64,000 nucleotides of DNA from contig NZ_CP009528.1 of NCBI RefSeq assembly GCF_000970025.1, forward strand, positions 1,165,168-1,229,167, given 5' to 3'. Numbering within the stretch: the stretch's first letter is position 1; each line of letters begins with the position of its first letter. The translations under genes and the position numbers were made by a program. Source of the DNA: Methanosarcina barkeri MS. GTDB taxonomy: Archaea; Halobacteriota; Methanosarcinia; Methanosarcinales; Methanosarcinaceae. Positions 36,845 to 63,022 of the stretch are shown here, one piece after another. The notes below the pieces were generated by a model that saw nothing but the letters and a program-made list of their open reading frames with translations, was not told where the DNA came from and did no database searches.

Positions 36845-36930
36845 TGTTATATCCTGAAATAATTTCGCAAATTCAAAACCATTTGAAAGTTCAATATACA
36901 CGATACAACAGCAAACGGCGCAAAAAGTTA
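36845..36930 (-). repeat. Dispersed 80-bp block, copy 1
   Basis: Read on the minus strand it matches blocks at 56631-56711 and 58318-58394: AACTTTTTGCGCCGTTTGCT, a TGAACTTTCAAA core, a GTTTTGAATTTGCGAAAT segment, then ATTTCAGGATATAA. It sits on the promoter side of the kup remnant and directly abuts the MITE. Confidence 0.75.
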
Positions 36931-42045: not shown

Positions 42046-43449
42046 TCAGGCAATCTGCTTTCTGAAGAGGTTGCAGGAATTAATCTTAATACCGAGCAAC
42101 TTTTCGATGTTCATCTTTGCAGCAATACCTTTTGCAGCGCCTGGTACTGACGTTATAATACCAATATCGAGTTCCTCACGCAGTTCACGCATAACGTGCT
42201 CATCTACAAGGTCCATCTTGTCGACCCCAAGTTTCTTTGCAACGTACTCTTTTGCCTCGCCTATGCGCATATTCTTTGAGAACTCCATTCTTGCAACCAG
42301 GTCTCCTGCAGCTCTTATTCCAGTCATACCTGAAGCCATTATGTGGGAAATCGGCATACCCATTGGGTCGCCGACTCCGATCTATATGCCGTCGACGCCT
42401 GCGATTTCGACCATTGCCTTGCTTGCTCTGGTAACCGCATCAATTGGAGGTGTTTCGAGCATGGGAATTCCGCCAACTCCCATACCCATATTTACATGAC
42501 AGGGGATTGGAGAAGCTCCTACGGCAGCCTTGATGAAAGTAACTGCACGAGCAAGGTTCCAGGCTGAGGTCTTGCTGGTATTGGTGTTGCATACTGGTCC
42601 AAATACATTTGCTCCGGCTTTTGCAACAAGCGGAGCCTGTTCATGCGGCCATAAACCTGCGAGCCGTACTCCATTATATTCCAGTTCTCCGTGCATACCG
42701 AGTACCATCTCGCCAGCCATTCCGGCTTCAATATACATATCAGAAAACTCTTTTCTAAGGGCCTGGATTGCATAAAGTGTGCCGTACATATCTCCGTCGC
42801 CTGCTGCGCCGGTTGTATCAAAGTTAACTCCATCGGCCCCTGAAGCAAAAAGTTTCTGCATAACCCAAACAGTGTCTCTAGTAAGGTGTTCGGCAGCGTG
42901 TTCCATAGATTCTTTTGCTTTGTCAATCTTGAATAGCTTCATAAGGTCGCCAGGGTTCTCAAAAGGTCCATCAGGTGTGTAGTAAAGTCCCATATTGGGC
43001 ATCGCACCGTAAAACAGTGGAATAACCATGTTCTGCTGGCAGACTTCCATTGCCTGGCACTCGTTTGATACGACAGGTTTTACCGGCTTGAAACTGTAAT
43101 CAATATGCCCGAGTTCCATTGTATCAGCACCAAAAGCACGCTCGTGCGTCATGCAGCCAACTAAACGGCTGGAAGGAATACCAACACCACTGTTGCCCTG
43201 GTCACCGTCAAGTCTAATGGTACCGATGTCGTGTGTCACAGGAATTTCCATACCCTGTTCGACACTAACAGTCTTGCCGGGCATCATGAGGATCTCTGCA
43301 AGCTTGTCCATTTCATTGGCATTGAGGTCAGGGATCTCTCCAAGGTCAGCAGCGTTTGCAGTACCGGCCTCGATCTCTTCCATTATTTTTTCTTTGGTAA
43401 GGTAGACACGTTTTCCGTCTCCCATTCTCAAAGCGTATTCAGTTGCCAT
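42046..43449 (-). CDS. mtbB: Dimethylamine methyltransferase with pyrrolysine
   Basis: The enzyme methylates the corrinoid protein MtbC with a methyl group from dimethylamine. The frame from ATG 43449 meets an in-frame TAG at 42382-42384 (codon 356) inside [19 protein letters not shown] and continues intact to TGA at 42046. The 467-residue product, with pyrrolysine at 356, has the family length. A single conserved stop in the known pyrrolysine position is translation by UAG decoding, not a mutation. Ribosome binding site GGAGAATTAAAAAA is upstream; mtbC ends 63 nt before. The tRNA-Pyl and PylRS genes are not in this window. Confidence 0.97.
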
Positions 43450-49663: not shown

Positions 49664-51547
49664 TCAAACTTTTTTCGCCTTTTTTACCTTCGCATTCTCT
49701 TCACTCAACCCTGCCCATATAACCTTATACTCTAGCTGTTCAAGCACAGGATAGTAAAGGCTGCGGTCAAGCCTGAAACTTTCAAAAACCTTTACTGCGT
49801 CGGCGTAAGTTTCTACTGCTCCCGGTCTTTCAAGTTCTTGATCTATTCTTTCAAGTAGCTGCCTGTGGATTAAATAATTTTCAAGGAGTATGTAATCTTG
49901 ATATTTCTCCAGATCTTCGACTTTTCTGGATTCCCTGAGTTCCTCTAAACCCCTTGATTTTTCGAACTCTCCAGTTCTTTCTGATTCTCTGATTTTTCCT
50001 AACTCTCCGATTTCTTCCAGTTCTCCGGCTTTTGCAAGCCTATCTGCAACTACTTCCTTTAAGGCATCTGGCAAAACTCTTTTTCCGGCTGCGATTTCCT
50101 CAAGATTTACAAGTTCTCCTGAAATTGGAAATTCCATTTCCTCCAGTCTTGACCGGTCTTCTGAAAGCTTTTTTTCCTCGTACTTTCTGAGTATCTGCAT
50201 GACTTTATTTGCCGGGATTTTTTTGTCAAAGAAGATTACTTCCTGCGAAGGGAAATCCTTTTCAGAACACTTGAGTTTTCTATCAATCAGGAGAATCACA
50301 GGTTCCTTTACTTGCTTGAGCTTCTCAATCTTATTTTCCAAATATTCGGGAGTCCAGAAGCCCACTATTTCCAGATATACCCTCATCCCGTCCCTCTGGA
50401 GAGAGAAGTCCGGGACAAAAGCGTATTTTCCGGCTTTAAGAATCGTTGGCTCCCTTTTTATTTTCCAGCTTCCCAAACTGAGGCTCCCAAACATCTGCTC
50501 AAGTGTGCTGTCATAGGCAGCTTCTTCGGCATCGATTTCCTCAATCCTGGCTTCTTTTTCAGCTTCTTCTCCGGCTTTTTTCCCGGTTTCTTCCCCAGCT
50601 TCATATTTTTCTATTTTTTCTTTAATTTGAAGCTCTGGCGAAAGGGTCTCAGGGTACACGGCTGCTTCAGGAGTGATTTTGAAAAACTTTTCCGAGTCAT
50701 CAAGGGTAAAATTCAGGATGCGCTTTCCCTGGTAGCCTTTGTGAAGAATGCCTGCCTTGAGCCTCCAGCCTTTTGACCTCAGCAGCGCAGGAAAGATTTT
50801 TGCAAAGGAATTCCCATAGCGTTCGGATATCCGAAAAAGAGAAGCAGGCCCGTCAAGATGCAGGTGGACAGCTTTTAATTCTTCGAAATTTTCTCTGGTT
50901 TTTCCTTCCTTTTCTTCTTTTTCTCTATTGATTCCTCTATCGATTTTGCCTCTTTCCTCGTCAGCATCTTCAAGGGAATACATAAGCCCTGAACGAAGGA
51001 TTTTCCAGAGGATTTTCTGAAAATCGCCTTTTATCCAGATGTCGAGGTCAACTGCACGGAAAAGCAGGGTCTGGGTAAGGGAAATGTTATACTGTTTTAG
51101 AAGTTCTGCAGGATAAATGGGTACAAAACTTTTGACTATCTGGTTTTCTTCAAGATCCGCCCAGAGTGCCTTTTCAAGTTCCTTTGCCGAAATTGAAAGT
51201 TTTTTTGCAGCTTTTTGCAGCGCCTCTTTTCTCTCGGCAGGAGAAAGTGCCATGCCTTCGCAGGCTTCAAAAACCGTTTCCCTCGCCAGAGAAGGGTCAA
51301 CAGCTGCATCCGTTTCTATAGCGGTGCGCCTTCCAAGCAGCTGGGAAAGTCCCCTGATAAAACGGTAATTCATTTCTTCGTAACCATCAAGTTCAGCCAG
51401 AAGATCCCCATAAGTTTTTCCGATATGCTGCTCGAAAGTTTCTATCAGAAGCCTTGCAAGTTCCAGTTTTTCGGGGTCAAAAGCTGCGTATACAGGCTTT
51501 ATTTTTCCTCCGGAGAGGCGGGTTACAAGAAGATCAGACGTGAGCAG
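49664..51547 (-). CDS. Bax1-like nuclease (DUF790), partner of XPB
   Basis: A 627-residue DUF790 protein, archaeal Bax1, which binds XPB helicase in nucleotide excision repair. The first ATG is 51373, but conserved sequence begins 58 codons upstream (LLTSDLLVTRLSGGKIKPVY) at a CTG (51545-51547). The frame is closed by a TGA 11 codons before it, and no ATG, GTG or TTG lies between. GGAGG at 51556-51560, eight nt before the CTG, supports that start and lies in the helicase coding end. The PDFSLQRDGMRVYLEIVGFW segment is the PD-(D/E)xK-like nuclease core. Confidence 0.85.
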   Translation of the reverse strand: MLTSDLLVTRLSGGKIKPVYAAFDPEKLELARLLIETFEQHIGKTYGDLLAELDGYEEMNYRFIRGLSQLLGRRTAIETDAAVDPSLARETVFEACEGMALSPAERKEALQKAAKKLSISAKELEKALWADLEENQIVKSFVPIYPAELLKQYNISLTQTLLFRAVDLDIWIKGDFQKILWKILRSGLMYSLEDADEERGKIDRGINREKEEKEGKTRENFEELKAVHLHLDGPASLFRISERYGNSFAKIFPALLRSKGWRLKAGILHKGYQGKRILNFTLDDSEKFFKITPEAAVYPETLSPELQIKEKIEKYEAGEETGKKAGEEAEKEARIEEIDAEEAAYDSTLEQMFGSLSLGSWKIKREPTILKAGKYAFVPDFSLQRDGMRVYLEIVGFWTPEYLENKIEKLKQVKEPVILLIDRKLKCSEKDFPSQEVIFFDKKIPANKVMQILRKYEEKKLSEDRSRLEEMEFPISGELVNLEEIAAGKRVLPDALKEVVADRLAKAGELEEIGELGKIRESERTGEFEKSRGLEELRESRKVEDLEKYQDYILLENYLIHRQLLERIDQELERPGAVETYADAVKVFESFRLDRSLYYPVLEQLEYKVIWAGLSEENAKVKKAKKV

Positions 51548-53039
51548 AAGAGCCGCCTCCGAGATTTTTTTCTTTCTTCATCCGGCTTTCCTTTCCAGAT
51601 TCTTTCTTTATCTGGTTTTCTTTTCCTGATTTTGTCTTCATCTGATTTTCTTGCGCTGATCTTCCAGAGCCTTTTCGGTTTGAAACAGCTTCTTCTCTTC
51701 TCCTGGCAGTTCCGGCTTCGGTTGTTTCTTCGGATATAATTTCGTAGAGTATAGCTTCTTTTCCTTCTTTCTTTCTGAGGATCCTTCCCAGGCGCTGGAT
51801 ATATGCTAATTTGCTCCCTGTACCGCTTGCTATAATTCCTATGTTTGCCTCAGGGACATCTATGCCCTCGTCAAGAACCTTTGAAGTAACTACAGCCCTG
51901 TATTTTCCTTCCTTGAACTTCTCGAGGATGGAATTCCTTTCTTTTGCAGGCGTTCTGTAGGTGATTGCAGGGATAAGAAATTCCCTGGAAATTCGGTGGA
52001 CAAGCCGGTTATGTTCCGTAAAAATGAAGATCCTGTCTTCTCGGTGTTTATTCAGGATCTCTTTTAACTTTTCAATTTTAGACTCCGTGTTAAAAGCAAG
52101 TTCTCTTGCTGCGTTTCTTGCAAGAAGGGCTTTTCTGGCTTCAGGGTCTCTCCCGCTTCTCATAACCAGTTTCTGAAAGTCCCTTGGCCCACGAAGAATC
52201 ATCCCGGTTTTCCGAAGATAATCTGTATAAACCGAATGACATTTGTCGTATTCTTTTCTTTCCTCGTCCGTAAGTGCAGCAGCTATCCGTTTTATCCTGT
52301 AAGGGGCAAGGTGGCTGCCTGCAAGTTCTGAGACATGCTTTTCGTAGACTTTTCCCCCTACAAGCCTGTTAAGCTCTGAGTGTAACTCATCTTCCCGTTC
52401 GTAAGTGGCTGTCAGTCCAAGCCTGTAAGGCGCTGCGGAAAATTCGGCAATGCTCCTGTATCCGGCGGCAGGCAGGTGATGAACTTCATCAAAAACAAGG
52501 AGACCGAACCTGTTCCCAAGTGTTTCGGCGTGAATATAAGCAGAGTCGTATGTTGAAACGGTTATCGGAAGAATTTTCTTCTCCCCGCCCCCAAGCTTTC
52601 CGATTTCCATCATAAAAGCTTCTTCAAGCTGTTTTTTCCATTGTTCAAGCAGATCAAGCGTCGGGACAACCACAAGGGCAGGGGTATTACAGCCTGCAAT
52701 TGCGCTGATTCCAACAAGGGTTTTTCCGCTTCCTGTTGGAAGGACAAGCACTCCCCATCTATTATTTTCTCCCCAGGTCACAAGAGCTTCGGCCTGATAA
52801 TCCCTTAATTTAAGTTTCTTTCCAGACGCTTCATAAGCTGCTGCCAGATCAGGACAGGGAAGGAGGTCAAGCACTTCATCTTCAAATAGAATCTTAGAAT
52901 TTTTCAGATAATCTGTTATGTCTCTGTAATAAAGAGCAAGAGCTCTAAAATTTCCGCTTCTTTCATCCCAGACTGCATTGGGAACTCTCACATTACCTTC
53001 TATAAGAAGCGTTCCCTGCTTGAAGCTAATTTTGATCAT
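51534..53039 (-). CDS. XPB-like superfamily 2 helicase
   Basis: A 501-residue helicase. Walker A VLPTGSGKTLVG (residues 99-110), DEVH box (184-187), GLTATYERED with the RED motif of XPB, and motif VI QRLGRILRKK. The tail is low-complexity, rich in Gly/Lys/Glu and Gln. It ends 14 nt inside the bax1 start. The pair Bax1-XPB unwinds and incises DNA at damage. Transcribed in the order xpb-bax1. Confidence 0.92.
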   Translation of the reverse strand: MIKISFKQGTLLIEGNVRVPNAVWDERSGNFRALALYYRDITDYLKNSKILFEDEVLDLLPCPDLAAAYEASGKKLKLRDYQAEALVTWGENNRWGVLVLPTGSGKTLVGISAIAGCNTPALVVVPTLDLLEQWKKQLEEAFMMEIGKLGGGEKKILPITVSTYDSAYIHAETLGNRFGLLVFDEVHHLPAAGYRSIAEFSAAPYRLGLTATYEREDELHSELNRLVGGKVYEKHVSELAGSHLAPYRIKRIAAALTDEERKEYDKCHSVYTDYLRKTGMILRGPRDFQKLVMRSGRDPEARKALLARNAARELAFNTESKIEKLKEILNKHREDRIFIFTEHNRLVHRISREFLIPAITYRTPAKERNSILEKFKEGKYRAVVTSKVLDEGIDVPEANIGIIASGTGSKLAYIQRLGRILRKKEGKEAILYEIISEETTEAGTARRREEAVSNRKGSGRSAQENQMKTKSGKENQIKKESGKESRMKKEKNLGGGSSAHV

Positions 53040-54338: not shown

Positions 54339-54589
54339 CTCTATTTTTCATTTTTTTATCTTTTACTAATTTATTGATAGGCTTAAACCCTATTTCGGGT
54401 AAATTAAAGCAATTATCTTATCGGGTTTTTCAGAATTTTTTCAGTCTACCAGTTTTGTAACCAGTTTTGTAAAAATTAGTTTTATATTTTTACCGCATAT
54501 TTGGAAAAATAAACACAAGTGAATTCTAACTTCAGCATAGATTTTCTGCCAGGTTTGAAACCCTTAACAGTTTTATTTAGAAAAGAGCT

Positions 54590-54780
54590 GCGTTCCCACC
54601 TGAAAAATTCTGGAAGTTCCGAACGGCACTTATTAGGTCTTGTTCAGGAAGAGGTTTAGTATTGGACTCACGGGTTGCGAGCTTCTTATCTCTTCACTTT
54701 TAGAGTAGATTTTTCGGAGTAGGCGTTGAAGTATTTCTTGTGGAATAGGTCTTGCTATGTGGTCTTGTAGATGAGAACGC
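54590..54780 (-). ncRNA. Candidate structured RNA, copy A
   Basis: A 191-nt segment read on the minus strand from 54780. It opens with GCGTTCTCATC and closes with GGTGGGAACGC, which pair over 11 positions with two G-T wobbles. Copy B pairs perfectly. A TATA box (minus, 54803-54810) lies about 26 nt upstream of 54780, as for archaeal start sites. Internal conserved blocks are CCTACTCCGAAAAA, CTCGCAACCCG, AAACCTCTTCC and CCGTTCGGAACTTCC. A T-run (CTCTTTTC) follows. No reading frame is shared. I do not recognise a known RNA family. Confidence 0.6.
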
Positions 54781-54802
54781 AAGTTATACTATGCTCTCAC
54801 TC

Positions 54803-54810: not shown

Positions 54811-55020
54811 ATTTTTAATAAATAATATTATTTTAACTCTATTTTGTTGGTATACGTATCTAATTTTTCTTTACTGGTTTAACCTTATAGCATTAAGCTA
54901 CAGTACCTGATGTAACTGAATGTAAATACTAAAAATGATTGCCTGTAAGGTAACAAGAAAAAGGTCAACTCGTTCTAAAAGGATGATTTACCTGAGATCC
55001 GGTAGCAGATAATCTTTCTT

Positions 55021-55125
55021 TAAGAGAACTGAGTTTAAGAGAACTGAGTTTAAGAAAACTGAATTTAAGAGAATTGAGTTTAAGAGAATTGAGTTTAAAA
55101 GAATTGAATTTAAGAGAATAGAGTT
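55021..55125. repeat. 15-nt tandem repeat array
   Basis: Seven copies of the 15-nt unit TAAGAGAACTGAGTT with minor variants (TAAGAAAACTGAATT, TAAAAGAATTGAATT), starting at 55021 and every 15 nt. It lies between the two RNA candidates. Confidence 0.95.
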
Positions 55126-55460
55126 TTAGTCAATTATTAAGTTGACTAACTGATCTTAACTAAAGAAAAAACCGCAGAAAGCAGGAGATCATGGAAAAAC
55201 TCTGTACTAAAGAGACCACGGAAAAACTCTGTACTAAAAACGTTTCTGGGGTTTTCGCTCAAGTCTTTTTTTAAAAAGCTTGCGGAAAAGCAGTTTTTTG
55301 AAAAGGCTTAAAGAACTCGGGTGGATAATGGTGTCGAATCAATAGCAAATTCAGATATAATCGATTGTAATTATTCAAAGTTATTAAATTTTTGAGGATT
55401 GATATGATACTAAGGATATGAAATTCGTAAAGTTCCTAAACACTTTTTTAAAATGAGGTG

Positions 55461-55648
55461 GCGTTCTCATCCGAAAAACCTGGGAGTTCCGAACGGTATT
55501 CAAGAGACTCACTTTATTATAGTTGGGGAAGAGGTTTGAGGTACTTGACTTATGCGTTGCGAGTTTCTCTTTCTATATCCCTTTATTATAGAGTAATTTT
55601 CTGGAGTAGGTGCTCTTTGCTAGTGGGGTGTTAAAGGGATGAGAACGC
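55461..55648 (-). ncRNA. Candidate structured RNA, copy B
   Basis: A 188-nt segment, homologous to copy A, read from 55648. Ends GCGTTCTCATC and GATGAGAACGC form a perfect 11-bp helix. Shared blocks are CCTACTCCAGAAAA, CTCGCAACGC, AAACCTCTTCC and CCGTTCGGAACTCCC; similarity extends 60 nt upstream past the promoter box. A TATA box (minus, 55671-55678) is about 26 nt upstream. ACCTCATTTT after the helix gives a short T-run. The copies are roughly 70 percent identical with many loop differences. Confidence 0.6.
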
Positions 55649-55670
55649 AATTTATACTATGCAGTTATTA

Positions 55671-55678: not shown

Positions 55679-55998
55679 ATTTTTAACAGTTAATCTTATT
55701 TTATTTCTCTTTTTTTGTGTATCTTTCTAACATAAGTTCATTAAACGAATGCTTATTTCATTAATTTAATAGTCATATAACCGCGTAAATTACGCGAGGA
55801 AACATCTCAAAATGTTGAGAATGATGAGGGGGATATCGTTCCAAAATGAAAAAATTCCGGAATAAGAAAATTCAGTAAAAGTAATTGCATATGAAATTGG
55901 CCTTTAGTTGTAGGTAAAATCGGCTTGAAGTTGCAGGTGAAATCAGCCTGAAGTGCAACTTACCTCATACGGATGTTATTATTGGAACTCCTCTTTTT

Positions 55999-56290
55999 TC
56001 AAGATGAGAGCTTTTCAAAATACTGCTTTATCAACGGTTCATATTCTTCAAACAGGTCTTCGATATAGGTCTGGCTGTACCTGAATCCTTTTTTAGAGCC
56101 GTTTGTATAAAAAGTGATTATAACCGCTCCCACAGCCATTAAAATAATATTGAACCTGTAGGTCAATGTAGTTCTGAGTTTTAAAAAATGTCTCCATTCC
56201 GGGAAGAAAATAAGCAAACTCGTAGGCATCGAATAAAATCATGAGCAGGAAAAGAAAGGCAAATCTCTCAGCTATTATTAAGAGCCGCAA
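55999..56290 (-). pseudogene. Small membrane protein, probably frameshifted
   Basis: Two overlapping frames read as one protein: RLLIIAERFAFLFLLMILFD and DAYEFAYFLPGMETFFKTQ from 56290, then after a shift IILMAVGAVIITFYTNGSKK and EDLFEEYEPLIKQYFEKLSS ending at 55999. Together they give two membrane helices and an acidic tail. A 1-nt shift near 56150 separates them. It may be a decayed gene or a sequence error; family unknown. Confidence 0.4.
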
Positions 56291-56842
56291 AAGCCCTTAA
56301 TAGTGCTTCAAATAAGTTTTATATTTTACCAGCACGAGCTCAAAAAACATGTAAATCCTTCCCATTATTGGGCTTTCACGCTAACTATATTGTAAATGTT
56401 ACTAAAATACTATTCCAATAATTTTTGAAATTTGGAAAGTGGGAAGAATCCGAAAGGTGTAAAGAATCCGAAAAACGTGATAGTTCGCAGGAGAAACCCA
56501 GATTTCCGGAATAAAAACAGTAAGCAATTCGGTATAGTTTGATTTTACTCAAATAAGATGAATGCACTTGTTTTTTCGGAATTGATCAAAGATTCGCTAC
56601 TAAAATTAAGTTGGAATTCACTCAAAATTTAACTTATGTGTCGCATGCTCTTTTATAAGGTATTAAACTTTCATAGAGTTTTTAATCTGCGAAATAATTT
56701 CAGGATACAATAAATCAAAAGACTGATCTATTATTCAACACAATAATAAAGTTTAAATTGTTTGGATGCAGATTTTATAAGCATTAGTACTTCATATATT
56801 GTCCCTTAAATTACATTTTATCTTGCGATTAGGAAGTTCATA
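56291..56842. other. AT-rich intergenic region with a dispersed block
   Basis: About 550 nt without a gene. GAATCCGAAA-type words recur at 56445-56475. The only larger structure is block copy 2 (56631-56711), listed separately. Confidence 0.35.
56631..56711 (+). repeat. Dispersed 80-bp block, copy 2
   Basis: AACTTATGTGTCGCATGCTC, a TATTAAACTTTCATAG core, GTTTTTAATCTGCGAAAT, then AATTTCAGGATACAATA. It matches copies at 36845 (minus) and 58318. It ends 131 nt before the start of the membrane protein gene. Confidence 0.8.
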
Positions 56843-58060
56843 ATGCAATCAGCCGGTTTCTACATTTTCATTCTAGTTCATTCTTCAATTGCCGCTACTA
56901 TGTATTATAAGCTTGAGGTAAAAAGTTCATTTGATGAATTGAATCAAATATTTGCACGTAACAAATCTAATGAATACAAAAAATTAAATTACTTGCTTCA
57001 AAACCTAAGTAAAAAAACAAATGTCGAATTTGCAATTTATAATTCAAAATTTGGAAGAAAGTTATCTATTATTTCATTTATGGTGGCTAGTACTTTTTTA
57101 TTTGCTTTAGCTGCATATGGAAACATTATCCTTTTATTAATAGGATTTATTTTATTCTTACCTGAAATTTACATATATTCAAAAAAAGCTACTACTTTTT
57201 TGAAACAAAGTCCTATTCATAATTTGGTTGTTAAAAAGTGGATAAACTTAACAACTAGCTTTATGTCTGATTTTTTATTTAATCTTGCGAGTAAGTATCT
57301 CAAGTTTTTATCTTATAACTTCGTCATTCTTATTTTGATATTCCTTTTCTGGTTTTTTTTGCAGAAAATTTTTCTGTCAGAAAATGGATTAAACTTTGAT
57401 AGTTTCTTGTCAGGTACAGCTAAAAATATGATTAATACAACGATTAATACAACAGTACTTTATGATGATAAACCGCTAGATGTAATATCTGGGAATAAGT
57501 TATCGTTTTCTGGAATTTTATTTACTCTAAGTATCGGTGGGGCAATTATTTTTTCATTAGTTGATAATTACAATGAACAAAAGGAAACAATTAATCAAAA
57601 CGTTTTTGAAATTAAAAAACATTACCAAAAATGGTTTCAATCTAAAAAAAATAGTCTTAATTTTGATCTCAGTAAATACGACGAATTTAACTCTGCTGTT
57701 AGTTATCTTCGAGATGAATTTAATACCTATGTGCAACTAAAGAACAATGTTTTAATATATCGTTTAACTAAAGGCTTAATGGTTATCATTTATTCAATGG
57801 GAATTTTTGTAATAATAGGGTCAGATTGGATAATTAGTCTTATTTTTAAACTATTTCCTATTGTTTCAACTATTTTTATTTTTTTGATTTTTTACCTTTT
57901 TTATTGCTTTAAAAACTCTACTTTTTACTCTATAGGAAAGACAAATATTTCTTCAGAAAGAAATCACACTATTTATGAATTTATAGATACCTCACAAGGC
58001 AATTACGGTGAAACAATTATTGATAAAAGAAATTACATGGTTGAGCCGATACATAAATAA
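56843..58060 (+). CDS. Unknown AT-rich membrane protein
   Basis: A 405-residue protein with roughly six membrane segments (about residues 72-110, 155-185, 215-240, 312-365) and a charged middle that could be cytosolic (ENQ... EIKKHYQKWFQ). I do not recognise the family. Base composition (rich in A/T, Ile, Lys, Asn, Phe) differs sharply from the housekeeping genes, suggesting transfer. It precedes the HNH and SIR2-like genes in the same orientation, each with its own promoter region. Confidence 0.7.
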   Translation: MQSAGFYIFILVHSSIAATMYYKLEVKSSFDELNQIFARNKSNEYKKLNYLLQNLSKKTNVEFAIYNSKFGRKLSIISFMVASTFLFALAAYGNIILLLIGFILFLPEIYIYSKKATTFLKQSPIHNLVVKKWINLTTSFMSDFLFNLASKYLKFLSYNFVILILIFLFWFFLQKIFLSENGLNFDSFLSGTAKNMINTTINTTVLYDDKPLDVISGNKLSFSGILFTLSIGGAIIFSLVDNYNEQKETINQNVFEIKKHYQKWFQSKKNSLNFDLSKYDEFNSAVSYLRDEFNTYVQLKNNVLIYRLTKGLMVIIYSMGIFVIIGSDWIISLIFKLFPIVSTIFIFLIFYLFYCFKNSTFYSIGKTNISSERNHTIYEFIDTSQGNYGETIIDKRNYMVEPIHK

Positions 58061-58064
58061 TCTT

Positions 58065-58100
58065 GGATCTTCGCTATTTCATATGAGTAACTCAAATTTT
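58065..58100 (+). repeat. Degenerate end of an ISL3-like element
   Basis: GGATCTTCGCTATTTCATAT, then GAGTAAC, resembles the left end of the MITE at 58129 (GGCTCTTCGCTGTTACGTAT, then GGGTTG) in the same direction. It is probably the scar of an older or partial element. Confidence 0.45.
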
Positions 58101-58128
58101 AGTTTTCCTAATTTTAGATAGATAATAA

Positions 58129-58307
58129 GGCTCTTCGCTGTTACGTATGGGTTGAAAATAATTGATTAGTTAGAAAGTATTCAGGCCAAATAGGAAAATA
58201 TCAAGTCTGAATGTAATTTTCAGCAACAACTGTTTTTATATTTAATATATTCAACTCAAAAATTTAGGAATGAAATATAAGTTACCCACTAGAAACAGCG
58301 AAGAGCC
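58129..58307. mobile_element. 179-bp MITE-like element with ISL3-type ends
   Basis: Left end GGCTCTTCGCTGTTACGTAT and right end, inverted, GGCTCTTCGCTGTTTCTAGT form terminal repeats of about 26 bp. ISL3-family elements commonly begin GGCTCTTCG. No coding capacity inside and no intact 8-bp duplication outside. It could also form a long hairpin RNA. Confidence 0.65.
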
Positions 58308-58317
58308 TTAAGCACTT

Positions 58318-58394
58318 AACTTTTGCGTTGTCTGCTTGTATCATATATTAAACTTTCAAAGTTTTTAATCTACCAAATAATTTTGGGATAAAAC
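58318..58394 (+). repeat. Dispersed 80-bp block, copy 3
   Basis: AACTTTTGCGTTGTCTGCTT, ATATTAAACTTTCAAAG, TTTTTAATCTACCAAATAAT and TTTGGGATAAAACA. It starts 10 nt after the MITE and lies 191 nt before the HNH start. Compare copies at 36845 and 56631. Confidence 0.8.
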
Positions 58395-58585
58395 AATCGT
58401 TTCTGATTATTTGACTATATGAAAATATACATAAACAATCCCATATTCAGAACTTTATTCAGTAAAATGTAAAATAGTAAATTGAATACTAAGCTTTTAC
58501 CAGAAGTCACCGAAAGTGAGTCATGGTGGAAGTTTTGGTAAGATTTGGACTACCAGTTAGTAAATATATGAAAGGTGGTTTACAG

Positions 58586-59407
58586 ATGGAAAGGCGGTAC
58601 TTGAAGGAATCTAATGGTCATTATGAAGTAGATATTGATATCTCTGTGGATGAGTGGAAGTCGATGCTTCAAAATCATGAAATTTTTTACGAAAACGCAT
58701 TGGATATGGTTTTGAAGTGGTATAATGAAGTTGGCCATCAAGCAACTGCTAATACAGTAAAGGAAAAATATTCACCTGAATTGAAACGTCCTCCATATAA
58801 CGGAATTGTCAAAGAATTAACTAGAAGGATTCTAAAACATTTGAATCGATTTGAAGTAATTGGTACTACAGGTAAAAAATCAGTATTCATCGTACCATTT
58901 GAAGGATGGTATGTTGACTACAAAAGACCTAATAAAGGATTCGTTTGGAAATTGAGAGATGAGTTGGTTCAAGCTTTAGAAGAAGTTGGTATGGTAGATA
59001 GACAAATATTTCTATCTAAAGAATACTTAGATAAAAAAGAGCAAGAAAATATTAACAAAGCGTTTCAGTTGTCTATATATGAATTGGAAAAAAAGATAGA
59101 TGCTAAAACAAAAAAGCAAACTCTGAAAACCACATCTGCAGCTTCGGTAAGATATGACCGAGATCCTGACGTTTCCGCTCTTGCGTTGAAGAAAGCTAAT
59201 GGTTATTGTCAACTTTGTGGTAACTTAGCTCCATTTTTAAAAAAAGATGGAACTCCTTTTTTGGAAGTTCATCACATCCGATGGTTGTCAGAAGGCGGGG
59301 TTGATGACAAAACGAATACTGTTGCTTTATGCCCTAATTGTCATCGTAAGATGCACATTTTAGACTTGCAGGATGATAGAGATTTCCTTATTAACTCAAT
59401 AAAATAA
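58586..59407 (+). CDS. HNH endonuclease
   Basis: A 273-residue protein with a C-terminal HNH nuclease domain: CQLC (208-211), LEVHHIRWLSEGG with the HH at 229-230, and CPNCHRKMH from 249. Four Cys form a structural zinc site. The first 150 residues form a separate helical, likely DNA-binding domain. ATG at 58586 follows AGGTGGTTTACAG; the longer frame from 58523 is less likely. HNH proteins of this layout occur as restriction or homing-type nucleases; target unknown. AT-rich like its neighbours. Confidence 0.85.
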   Translation: MERRYLKESNGHYEVDIDISVDEWKSMLQNHEIFYENALDMVLKWYNEVGHQATANTVKEKYSPELKRPPYNGIVKELTRRILKHLNRFEVIGTTGKKSVFIVPFEGWYVDYKRPNKGFVWKLRDELVQALEEVGMVDRQIFLSKEYLDKKEQENINKAFQLSIYELEKKIDAKTKKQTLKTTSAASVRYDRDPDVSALALKKANGYCQLCGNLAPFLKKDGTPFLEVHHIRWLSEGGVDDKTNTVALCPNCHRKMHILDLQDDRDFLINSIK

Positions 59408-59692
59408 ATAATAGAATTGGATAATTATTAATTTTTTTGATTTAGTATAACTTGTTACTCTCTCATTTTTTCAACATATTTAACCTATGTTTTTCTAAAC
59501 TTATTCATTCAATATACTGGAGGAGTATATGAGTTATGAATAGTTGCCCTTTAATCAACTGCAAAAAATAGTACGAAAAACATAGTAAACAGTAAACATA
59601 ACATTAAGAGCCTTATCTAGACATGAAAGCAAAAACAGACTATAATTTAAAAAACATTATATGTGATCGTATGTTACCAAATAGTGATTAAG
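59408..59692. other. Intergenic region between HNH and SIR2-like genes
   Basis: About 285 nt, strongly AT-rich, with no gene, hairpin or recognised repeat. GGAGGAGTATATGAG at about 59520 looks like an orphan ribosome binding site with ATG, but the frame closes within a few codons. Confidence 0.35.
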
Positions 59693-60835
59693 ATGAGTAA
59701 TAAAAATACTGGTTCTATGTATGCTGAAAACATATTATTATTAGGAGCTGGTTTTACTAAAAATTTTGGCGGTCTATTAGCAAGTGAAATGTGGGCTGAA
59801 ATATTTAATAATGAAAAAATTCAGGCTCAACCGAGAATTAAAAAATTAATGCTTAATAATTTCGATTATGAATCAGTTTATTACTCTGTGCTAGAAGGAT
59901 TAGAAGACAAAGAAAGTTTATTGCCAACTTTAAAATTTAAACGTAAAGAAAAAGACGCCATCCAAGAGGCCACGAAAGCTGCATACGACACCATAGACGA
60001 AACTCTTTTAAGGCGATTAAGAAAATACCCAGAAATAGAATGGATTCACAACACTGATACATTATTTTTTAATTTTGGCAATACAAAAAATAAAAGTTTT
60101 ATCTTTACACTGAATCAAGATTTGTTTATTGAAAGATTTTACCAAAATCCTCTTGAGCCTAGAGATCCTACCAAAATCTATATTCTTAGACTTTGTATTC
60201 CTGGAATTGATAAATATCCAGTATGGTATATGAATAGAGATTCTTTTTATGATTTTATTCCATTTTCAACTGATGAAGAAAGAGAACAATTCTATAATTT
60301 AAAAAAGGAAGATTATTATCTACTACCTAACGAAGATGTATTAAATTCTAGAAAAGAAAATCTGTTGAAAAAAGAAAGTTATTTTCTGATAAAGCTCCAC
60401 GGGTCATATAATTGGATTAGTTCTAATGGATCAAAATCAATGGTTATCGGCAGGGGCAAAACTGAACAGATTAATAATGAACCTTTATTGAGATTTTATT
60501 TTGACACTTTTAAAGAAGTACTTTCACAGGATAAACGTCGTTTATTAGTAATAGGTTATGGTTTTGGCGATGAACATATTAACAGTGTAATATCTAATGC
60601 TGTTAAAAATCATGGACTTAAAATTTATATCCTTTCGCCAGAGTCACCAAAAAGTTTTAAAGAAAAATTATGTGATGGATGCGGAAAGTCTAAAGATATT
60701 ATTAATATATGGAACGGAGTTTCAGGTTACTTCCAATGTGTAGAAGATGTTTTATTAAAGGATACATATGGTAATCAATCTGAAAAAGAGCATTTTTATA
60801 ATGTATTCTTCGGTAAAAACAACTGGAAGTTATAA
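59693..60835 (+). CDS. SIR2-like (NADase-type) protein
   Basis: A 380-residue SIR2-domain protein. Signature regions: LLLGAGFTKNFGG (NAD loop, residues 15-27), FTLNQD (138-143), IKLHGSYNW (around 233-241), VIGYGFGDEHIN. This matches the SIR2_2-type domain of antiphage and Argonaute-associated NADases, not the classic deacetylase with its zinc ribbon, though CDGCGKS late in the chain is a lone CxxC. ATG at 59693 follows the open frame from 59663. Isolated, AT-rich, next to HNH; a defence role is likely but unproven. Confidence 0.82.
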   Translation: MSNKNTGSMYAENILLLGAGFTKNFGGLLASEMWAEIFNNEKIQAQPRIKKLMLNNFDYESVYYSVLEGLEDKESLLPTLKFKRKEKDAIQEATKAAYDTIDETLLRRLRKYPEIEWIHNTDTLFFNFGNTKNKSFIFTLNQDLFIERFYQNPLEPRDPTKIYILRLCIPGIDKYPVWYMNRDSFYDFIPFSTDEEREQFYNLKKEDYYLLPNEDVLNSRKENLLKKESYFLIKLHGSYNWISSNGSKSMVIGRGKTEQINNEPLLRFYFDTFKEVLSQDKRRLLVIGYGFGDEHINSVISNAVKNHGLKIYILSPESPKSFKEKLCDGCGKSKDIINIWNGVSGYFQCVEDVLLKDTYGNQSEKEHFYNVFFGKNNWKL

Positions 60836-60983
60836 CATAAAATGATTACTTATTAACTTCTAACTTCCTTTTGATTGAAGTAATTCATGTGATTTTTTGT
60901 AATTTTTTTGATTACAACTCTGCCAGACATCCAATACTAATAGAAATTCAATTCTGTAAGAAAGCCATACCTGTCCAGAAAGT

Positions 60984-61778
60984 TCACCCCTGAATAATTC
61001 CATCTTTCAACCTTATTACTCTGTCTGCGTATTCGGCATGCCATTCTTCATGTGTAACCATTACAATTGTCTGTCCTTTTTCCTGATTGAATTTCTCGAA
61101 AAGGTCAAGGACTTCCTTTGAGGTCTGGGAATCCAGATTAGCACAGGGCTCGTCTGCAAAAAGGACTTCTGGGGAATGGGCAAGGGCTCTGGCTATTGAG
61201 ACTCTCTGCTGCTGGCCGCCGCTCATCTTGGAAGGGAGTTGCTGAAGGCGGTCGCCAAGCCCAACTGCGGAAAGAATTTCTGCGGCTGCGGATTCACATT
61301 CGGTTTTACTTTTGCCCTGCATTATAAGGGAGATATAGACATTTTCCATAGCATTGAGCTCGGGAAGTAAAGCATAGTCCTGAAAGACATAGCCCAGGTT
61401 ATGCAACCTGAATTTGCCTTTTTCGCTGTCTGAAAGTCTGGAGGTATCCGTACCGTCTATAATGACTTTTCCCGAATTTGGGGTATCAAGCAGGCCGAGC
61501 TGGTTCAGAAGAGTGGTTTTGCCTGAACCACTAGGGCCCATGATTGCAATGAACTCTCCACGCCGGATTCTTACATTTACGCTGCGCAGGGCCCGGACCT
61601 CTACCTCTCCCATCTTGAAGGTTCGCACGATATCGATACCCTCTATAATAGTATCTATAATAGTATCCTCTGTCGGTTTTTGGATTTCATCCGTACTTTT
61701 TATTGCTTCCTCAGTCTGCTTTTGGATTATTTCCATAGTTTTTACTGCTTCTTCAGCCTGCTTTTGGATTATTTCCAT
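60984..61778 (-). CDS. LolD/MacB-type ABC transporter ATPase
   Basis: A 264-residue ATPase. Walker A GPSGSGKTTLLNQLGLLD, signature SGGQQQRVSIARAL, Walker B LFADEPCANLD. The core begins near IIEGIDIVRTFKMGEVEVRA; the first about 47 residues are a repeat-rich extension (MEIIQKQAEEAVKT, MEIIQKQTEEAIKST, DEIQKPTEDTI), not present in typical family members. It is downstream of the permease and likely forms one exporter with it. Confidence 0.92.
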   Translation of the reverse strand: MEIIQKQAEEAVKTMEIIQKQTEEAIKSTDEIQKPTEDTIIDTIIEGIDIVRTFKMGEVEVRALRSVNVRIRRGEFIAIMGPSGSGKTTLLNQLGLLDTPNSGKVIIDGTDTSRLSDSEKGKFRLHNLGYVFQDYALLPELNAMENVYISLIMQGKSKTECESAAAEILSAVGLGDRLQQLPSKMSGGQQQRVSIARALAHSPEVLFADEPCANLDSQTSKEVLDLFEKFNQEKGQTIVMVTHEEWHAEYADRVIRLKDGIIQG

Positions 61779-61816: not shown

Positions 61817-63022
61817 TTATTTGCCCCAGATCAGGTCAAGAAGATCTTTCTGAGCCAGTTTATACGCAGGAATTACCGAGCCCACTACAGAAGAAAGAAA
61901 CAGGAGGACTGCCCGATTTAAGGCTTCTGCATTGTCCAGCTTGAGGCTCATGTCTCCAAGCGGGATTTCTACAGGATGGGAAACCGTATAAGGCACAAGC
62001 CCAAAGCGCATAAACAAGTAGCCAAGTATAACACCCGCGCCTGCGTAAAGCATGGCCTGGAGCACAAAGGATGTAACTATCACGTTTTGTTCTATCCCTA
62101 TTGCTTTCTGAACCCCTATCTGTCTTTTTTTATTCACAATATTTACGTAAATAACCACAAAGATGATCACAAAAGCAATTAGCAGGCCGATTGCATTCAT
62201 AATATTCCTGACCAGCCCAAGTGTGCTTTCGATCAGCCGGAGGAGACCTGCAAATTCATGCCAGGTACGGATATTCTCACTGATGCCAAGAGAAAGGAGC
62301 GCAGTTCTGGTATCGTCCTCAGGTGTACCGTCTGCGGTTTTAACGGCTATTTCCTGAGCAAGGTCCCTGCCCTCAATACCCAGCATTTCTTCAAGGTCAG
62401 CTCTGGTAAGATAGGCTGAGGCATCAGCCATGAAATAGCGCGTTGTATAGATTCCTTTTACCCTGAACTCCCGGGTTACACCTCCGATTGTGAGTTCAAC
62501 GGTATCTCCTACTTCCACACCTCCTAAAGATCTCGAGTCCATGAGGGCTCCGAAACCTCCTGAGACCTCCCTGCCCAGAATAATCTCTCCTTTATCAGGC
62601 CTGCTCAGAAATTCCCCACTTATCATAGCATCTTCAAGGCCTGTTACAAAGATCTCGTCCGCAGGATCTATCCCATAAACCGTAGCTCCTATTTCTTTCT
62701 CTTTATAGCGGACGTTTCCAGTCATTTTCAGGCGAGCTGAGGTCCCTACCACCTGCGGAAGACTTTCTATCTTTTTCTGGAGGGCTGATGCGTCCTCTAT
62801 ATAGCGTTCCTCTTCCTTCGGTTCGACCACGACGTTTCCGGTCTGAAAGTTCACCATAAGTTCATTAAACTTGAGCGTAACCCCAGCCAGCATGCTTGAA
62901 AAAAGCACAAGCTGTATAAAGATCAGGGTCAGGACGAAAACTGTAAAGATTGTAATCCCTTTATTGCCCCTGGTTATGGAGCGACTGGCAAGGAAGAAGG
63001 AAACTCTCGCTTTTTCGAGCAT
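61817..63022 (-). CDS. FtsX/MacB-type ABC transporter permease
   Basis: A 401-residue permease with the four-helix plan: one helix near the N-terminus (ITIFTVFVLTLIFIQLVLFS), a large extracellular domain, and three C-terminal helices, the last followed by a basic end. It is 38 nt upstream of the ATPase start. Related systems move lipids, lipoproteins or peptides, or transduce signals. Confidence 0.9.
   Translation of the reverse strand: MLEKARVSFFLASRSITRGNKGITIFTVFVLTLIFIQLVLFSSMLAGVTLKFNELMVNFQTGNVVVEPKEEERYIEDASALQKKIESLPQVVGTSARLKMTGNVRYKEKEIGATVYGIDPADEIFVTGLEDAMISGEFLSRPDKGEIILGREVSGGFGALMDSRSLGGVEVGDTVELTIGGVTREFRVKGIYTTRYFMADASAYLTRADLEEMLGIEGRDLAQEIAVKTADGTPEDDTRTALLSLGISENIRTWHEFAGLLRLIESTLGLVRNIMNAIGLLIAFVIIFVVIYVNIVNKKRQIGVQKAIGIEQNVIVTSFVLQAMLYAGAGVILGYLFMRFGLVPYTVSHPVEIPLGDMSLKLDNAEALNRAVLLFLSSVVGSVIPAYKLAQKDLLDLIWGK

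What the first reader, a model, noticed from the sequence alone, without database searches (positions are those of the whole stretch)
56843..60835. AT-rich accessory island with SIR2-like and HNH proteins
Three solitary plus-strand genes in a gene-poor stretch: an unknown multi-pass membrane protein, an HNH nuclease and a SIR2-type protein with the NAD-binding motifs of antiphage NADases. Composition differs from the core genes, MITE scars separate them. This is a plausible undescribed defence module or a collection of single-gene systems.
Basis: inference. Interest (0 to 1): 0.64.

Follow-up and report, generated by a model that had tools for sequence, protein, structure and literature searches.

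The report
Methanosarcina defence-gene swap site
Three unrelated single genes, two of which look like stand-alone antiviral genes (a DNA-cutting enzyme and an NAD-destroying enzyme), sit in a chromosome slot where related methane-making archaea carry other immune-type genes or nothing; this is an ordinary defence-gene slot, not a new three-part system.

Summary
Three plus-strand genes lie in a 28.7% GC stretch of a Methanosarcina-type genome: a multi-pass membrane protein (A), an HNH protein (B) and a SIR2 protein (C). One MITE is real (58126-58310), and an ~80-bp repeat flanks A. The "module" reading is not supported: among 111 family genomes A and C share only this one, and near-full-length B homologues lie elsewhere. 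Synteny shows a variable slot between a helicase gene and an ABC transporter: near-empty in two relatives, Shango SngABC in a third, and in a fourth A plus a P-loop/TPR protein where this window has B+C. B is best read as a stand-alone McrA-like, modification-dependent nuclease: EcoKMcrA-like HNH plus an unnamed N-terminal domain that is also fused to two other HNH classes and an McrB-like AAA+ protein, and sits beside Gabija on Klebsiella plasmids. C is best read as a stand-alone SIR2 NADase nearest the SIR2 of SIR2-HerA (Nezha), without HerA; active-site Asn/His are conserved, many homologues are decayed, two sit beside defence-type genes. A has no assigned function. No activity was tested. 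Verdict: new members of known kinds in a defence hotspot; the boldest lead is B's N-terminal domain.

The parts
56843..58060 (+). Gene A: 405-aa multi-pass membrane protein, no family; function unknown
   Evidence: 95% identical orthologue at the same place in G078; dN/dS about 0.44 to G078 and 0.26 to G007
58586..59407 (+). Gene B: HNH nuclease (ORF from 58523; likely start 58586, 273 aa); unnamed N-terminal domain (protein residues about 22-165) plus EcoKMcrA-like HNH (about 207-290)
59693..60835 (+). Gene C: SIR2-like protein (ORF from 59663; likely start 59693, 380 aa) with GAGFTKNFG, TLNQD, KLHGS and GYGFGDEHIN motifs
58126..58310 (.). MITE with 42-nt terminal inverted repeats, dispersed in the genome; lies inside the segment shared with G078, so it is older than the B+C swap
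56635..56715 (+). Direct repeat copy r1, upstream of A; ends where the alignment to the near-empty site of G101 breaks off
58318..58397 (+). Direct repeat copy r2, upstream of B; ends next to the left break of the swapped segment
58397..60958 (.). Swapped segment B+C; G078 has a 919-aa P-loop/TPR protein gene in the same place
56715..60970 (.). Whole stretch absent from G101 (and, from about 56530, from G077)
51534..53039 (-). Left flank: conserved helicase gene (a match in 30 of 30 genus genomes searched, weak in two)
60984..61778 (-). Right flank: ABC transporter ATPase gene
61817..63022 (-). Right flank: ABC transporter permease gene
55981..56290 (-). Remnant of a membrane-protein gene that is whole in G078, where it ends a MoxR/vWA-type gene run now missing here
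   Evidence: MoxR/vWA naming by eye, not by a family search

Best explanation
The stretch is a defence hotspot of the Methanosarcina chromosome, loaded here with independent genes that do not form one system. B is a stand-alone restriction nuclease that most likely reads a DNA modification, or foreign sequence, through its N-terminal domain and cuts nearby with a McrA-type HNH domain. C is a stand-alone SIR2 NADase that most likely depletes NAD+ when infection is sensed, arresting the infected cell; how it is triggered without HerA is unknown (own trigger, or a host partner in trans). A is an unrelated membrane protein acquired earlier. Shown: gene content, synteny, domain make-up, conserved motifs, lack of co-occurrence. 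Inferred: modification dependence, NADase activity, antiviral role.
For: Slot: near-empty in G077 and G101, SngABC (E 6e-71 to 5e-239) in G099, A plus P-loop/TPR protein in G078. Independence: A in 7, C in 8, B in 33 of 111 family genomes, A and C together only in the own genome. B: HNH nearest EcoKMcrA (PDB 6ghc, E 3e-20; hhalign 99% on the HNH part); the N-terminal domain carries a different HNH in 6 of 7 near homologues, an McrB-like AAA+ in G230, and lies beside GajA/GajB on Klebsiella plasmids. C: nearest solved relatives are SIR2s of SIR2-HerA, and the poor AlphaFold model has the same top hits; N151, D153, H246 invariant in 5 of 5 long homologues; homologues beside BovA-like (E 7e-56) and PDC-S37/Mokosh-like (E 5e-45) genes; several decayed copies.
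Against: No activity data. B's N-terminal domain matches no known modification reader (NEco, DpnI_C; Pfam). C has no HerA partner in the surrounding ORFs, and Nezha needs HerA for immunity (PMC11559045, section 8, read). Only 5 of 30 genus genomes show both flanks close together, and only one of these holds a PADLOC-named full system, so 'hotspot' rests on few cases.
Confidence: 0.62

Rival explanations
1. A, B and C are one undescribed three-gene defence module, A being the membrane effector.
For: Same strand, same AT-rich stretch, adjacent.
Against: A is kept without B and C in G078, G007 and G079; C is found without A and mostly without B; intergenic gaps hold a MITE and a repeat; A is older in the slot than B+C.
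Confidence: 0.04
2. B and C work as a two-gene system (the swapped segment carries exactly these two).
For: B and C lie within one 2.56-kb segment that is replaced as a block relative to G078.
Against: No other genome of 111 has them adjacent; only G096 has a strong B and a C remnant, on different contigs. Each has homologues alone.
Confidence: 0.08
3. C is half of a Nezha-like SIR2-HerA system that uses a host-encoded HerA-type ATPase in trans.
For: C is closest to SIR2s of SIR2-HerA; by eye, relatives G007 and G079 carry a HerA-like ATPase gene elsewhere (no family search made).
Against: No HerA gene by C or, in the stretches read, by its homologues. Not tested in the own genome.
Confidence: 0.15
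4. B is a mobile or solitary HNH gene without a defence role (homing-type endonuclease).
For: HNH domains are common in mobile introns and homing genes (recalled); many PHROGs HNH families match the HNH half.
Against: B's best HNH match is EcoKMcrA, not homing nucleases; the N-terminal domain is shared with an McrB-like protein and sits beside Gabija; no intein or intron context.
Confidence: 0.15

Closest known systems
EcoKMcrA (type IV, E. coli; PDB 6ghc)
   Same: HNH domain: B 210-279 aligns with EcoKMcrA 198-267; similar length and N-reader/C-nuclease layout
   Different: The N-terminal half does not align with EcoKMcrA's NEco domain
wH-HNH / PUA-wH-HNH and NTD-wH-NTPase type IV enzymes (PMC11037411; abstract, sections 14, 16, 25 and found passages read)
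   Same: One reader domain combined with HNH or McrB-like NTPase; wH-HNH length 224-283 aa is close to B's 273
   Different: B's domain does not match DpnI_C: own genome has no hit to PF17726, hhalign probability 0.7%
SIR2 of SIR2-HerA / Nezha (PDB 8j4u, 8su9, 8w9l; PMC11559045)
   Same: Single-domain SIR2 of about 380-415 aa, same Asn and His motif positions
   Different: No HerA beside C
Core defence hotspots with Shango, Pseudomonas aeruginosa (PMC10250203; passages read)
   Same: Fixed core flanks, low GC, variable immune genes, Shango among them
   Different: Here an archaeal slot, seen in only 5 genomes

Membership tests
Type IV (modification-dependent) McrA-type restriction enzyme, for B | McrA-type HNH nuclease domain | tested here: met
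   Pfam HNH 40.4 bits; PADLOC mREase_IV E 2e-21; PDB 6ghc E 3e-20
Type IV (modification-dependent) McrA-type restriction enzyme, for B | Known modification-reading domain (NEco, SRA, EVE, DpnI_C-type wH) | tested here: not met
   No Pfam reader domain, no NEco alignment, no DpnI_C similarity. Therefore B is not filed as a proven member, only as 'works like'
Type IV (modification-dependent) McrA-type restriction enzyme, for B | No cognate methyltransferase beside it | tested here: met
   Between 54339 and 60983 the only ORFs over 100 aa are A, B and C
Type IV (modification-dependent) McrA-type restriction enzyme, for B | Cuts only modified DNA | not testable with these tools
   Needs the enzyme
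Nezha (SIR2-HerA), for C | SIR2 domain with catalytic Asn and His | tested here: met
   N151 and H246 invariant in 5 of 5 and at the positions of the FTTNYD and KLHGS motifs of the SIR2-HerA SIR2
Nezha (SIR2-HerA), for C | HerA ATPase gene next to it | tested here: not met
   No such ORF around C, nor among the ORFs listed by homologues. C is not filed as Nezha
NCBIfam SIR2_antiphage NF042942 | Score over cut-off 500 bits | tested here: not met
   58.9 bits
DSR1/DSR2, Thoeris ThsA, SIR2-APAZ | Long C-terminal helical region, SLOG/STALD, or APAZ domain fused to SIR2 (recalled) | tested here: not met
   C is about 380 aa and only SIR2_2 is found
Three-gene module A-B-C | Co-occurrence and adjacency in other genomes | tested here: not met
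   111 genomes; A and C together only in the own genome
Core defence hotspot | Same flanking core genes, variable content with known defence systems | tested here: met
   5 syntenic genomes of 30, 2 near-empty, 1 with SngABC; small sample

The most novel reading that the evidence does not exclude
B's N-terminal domain is an unnamed DNA-modification reader of its own, shuffled among at least three HNH nuclease lineages and an McrB-like AAA+ motor across archaea and enterobacteria, and travelling with Gabija on conjugative Klebsiella plasmids; C is the type of a SIR2 clade that works without HerA.
Probability: 0.35. Interest if true: 0.55.

Novelty: new member of a known kind. Interest (0 to 1): 0.36.

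Why it matters
Defence in methanogens is little studied (paper searches listed no Methanosarcina SIR2 defence work among 4 and 6 papers). A fixed slot with swapped immune genes gives a place to look for more. B's N-terminal domain, seen in 1365 of 72,556 plasmid records, is a concrete candidate for an unnamed modification reader that can be tested in lab E. coli.

Tried and rejected
Three-gene module: rejected on co-occurrence. Viral homologues: scans of viral contigs gave none for B and C and one for A, in a contig matching the G075 region. B as DpnI_C-type wH enzyme: HMM and hhalign negative; the helix pattern of the poor model still permits a winged helix. B as NEco: only the HNH part aligns. 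Structure of B from one sequence: pLDDT 34, not used. Structure of C with 5 rows: pLDDT 50.6, half unfolded; Foldseek has no match with E <= 0.001, though SIR2-HerA chains rank at the top, so it is weak support only. Nitrile hydratase match of the A4 profile (E 7e-4) fell to E 0.15 with the more diverse profile A8 and was dropped as chance. First blastn for the ~80-bp repeat printed nothing and was rerun as a database search; the near-empty genomes G077 and G101 gave no blast hit there, so their single repeat copy is seen only in the alignment and in the position of the break. A lead not tested: the anti-phage 'HNH endonuclease 3' of E. coli NILS69 (PMC12409345, passages read), also McrA-like by fold, may or may not share B's N-terminal domain.
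Full report
Where it is. The window lies in a 4.57-Mb two-contig genome (G000:C2:1165168-1229167). A pyrrolysine-insertion RNA of mtbB and the genus searches fit Methanosarcina; the name itself is inferred.

The observation. The three ORFs are present as stated. The stretch 56600-60970 has 28.7% GC against 42.9% and 45.6% in the flanks. B is an HNH protein and C a SIR2_2 protein; A has no family. One MITE lies between A and B, and its presence in the segment shared with G078 makes it older than the arrival of B and C. An ~80-bp repeat precedes A and again precedes B; a third, divergent copy lies at 36845-36925, so it is a dispersed element and not unique to this slot.

Do the three belong together? 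In 111 genomes of the family, A has a match in 7, C in 8 and B in 33. For B most of the 33 are matches to the HNH half only; nine genomes, own included, have a match at E <= 1e-50 that covers the N-terminal domain. A and C share only the own genome. B (strong) and A share the own genome and G075, where the A relative is weak and about 374 kb away; B (strong) and C share the own genome and G096, where the C remnant is on another contig. In 344 genomes of the phylum the profiles hit 7 (B N-terminal domain), 4 (C, at E <= 1e-10) and 4 (A). So there is no module.

The slot. Both flanks lie close together in 5 of 30 genus genomes. G077 and G101 run from about 56530 or 56714 straight to 60971, that is, they lack the whole stretch. 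G078 has A (95% identical) and the MITE, but a 919-aa P-loop/TPR protein where this window has B and C, and a 6.8-kb gene run further left of which this window keeps only a remnant. G099 has SngA, SngB and SngC of Shango (E 6e-71, 1e-184, 5e-239) and a UvrD-type helicase of 1102 aa. Its SngA reading contains a masked stretch. This is the pattern called a core defence hotspot in Pseudomonas, where Shango was also found (PMC10250203, passages). The sample is small, and in the other 25 genomes the flanks are apart, on different contigs or incomplete.

B. The HNH half is closest to EcoKMcrA and PADLOC calls it mREase_IV. The N-terminal half is 65-74% identical to seven Methanosarcinaceae homologues, of which six carry a different HNH half. 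More distant copies are joined to an extra segment plus HNH (G007, G008), to HNH (a second gene in this genome) and to an McrB-like AAA+ protein (G230). On plasmids, tblastn finds it in 1365 of 72,556 records, mainly Klebsiella, at under 60% identity; in the two records opened the gene follows an AAA ATPase and a UvrD helicase, and for the one tested these are GajA and GajB (E 1e-102, 1e-46). The three-gene DNA covers at least 80% of the query in 254 plasmid records. In phage records there is one match, at E 7e-4. No solved structure or named reader domain matches. A reader domain shuffled among nucleases and McrB-like motors is what type IV enzymes show (PMC11037411, abstract and sections 14, 16, 25 read), which is why modification-dependent cutting is the preferred reading; the modification is unknown.

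C. C carries GAGFTKNFG, TLNQD, KLHGS and GYGFGDEHIN; N151, D153 and H246 are invariant in the five long sequences aligned. The nearest solved proteins are SIR2s of SIR2-HerA complexes (8j4u E 2e-6, 8yhx E 8e-6, 8w9l E 4e-3; profile E 2e-8, 6e-11, 2e-5). For 8yhx the record says only 'SIR2 family protein'. In Vibrio Nezha, mutating the Asn and His abolishes immunity and deleting herA weakens it (PMC11559045, section 8). C has no HerA neighbour. Of the eight family genomes with matches, G076 (one of two copies), G099, G096, G080 and G060 show broken or partial copies; G000, G042, the second G076 copy and a distant relative in G071 are open. Two neighbours of C homologues are defence-type: a BovA-like CHAT protein in G099 and a PDC-S37/Mokosh-like helicase in a Methanoperedens contig. 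dN/dS is about 0.26-0.36, which speaks for a working protein. All this fits an antiviral NADase with fast turnover; the activity is inferred.

A. A is kept under moderate constraint (dN/dS 0.44 to G078, few changes; 0.26 to G007), occurs singly, in two relatives beside the same leuB-type gene, and in one weak relative inside what looks like a provirus (naming by eye). I assign no mechanism beyond an integral membrane protein with a central conserved transmembrane segment and a cytosolic or periplasmic helical part; a defence role is possible but unsupported.

Verdict. Ordinary in kind: independent, probably defensive single genes in a variable slot. The part most worth a specialist's time is the N-terminal domain of B.

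Noticed in passing
window 54588-54795 and 55459-55662, - strand: Two tandem copies of a ~200-nt conserved non-coding element with a TATA-like box just upstream and complementary ends (GCGTTCTCATC / GATGAGAACGC); a third copy in the genome; kept at this place in G077, G078, G099 and G101, with copies in G087 and G079. No Rfam match up to E 1; 1 of 17 predicted pairs shows compensatory change. Candidate small RNA.
   Followed up: partly
window 42285-42384, - strand: PYLIS_2 pyrrolysine insertion element of mtbB.
   Followed up: no
window 36845-36925, - strand: Third copy of the ~80-bp dispersed repeat, in another AT-rich stretch upstream of a potassium-transporter-like gene (gene name by eye).
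   Followed up: no
window 54989-55135: Imperfect 15-bp tandem repeat, about 8 copies.
   Followed up: no
L116:6174-7418: C homologue of G076 with an extra N-terminal stretch that looks by eye like the start of a leucine-rich-repeat protein.
   Followed up: no
L161:1861-5882: GajA, GajB and an HNH gene with B's N-terminal domain side by side on Klebsiella plasmids; DNA covering at least 80% of it in 254 of 72,556 records.
   Followed up: partly
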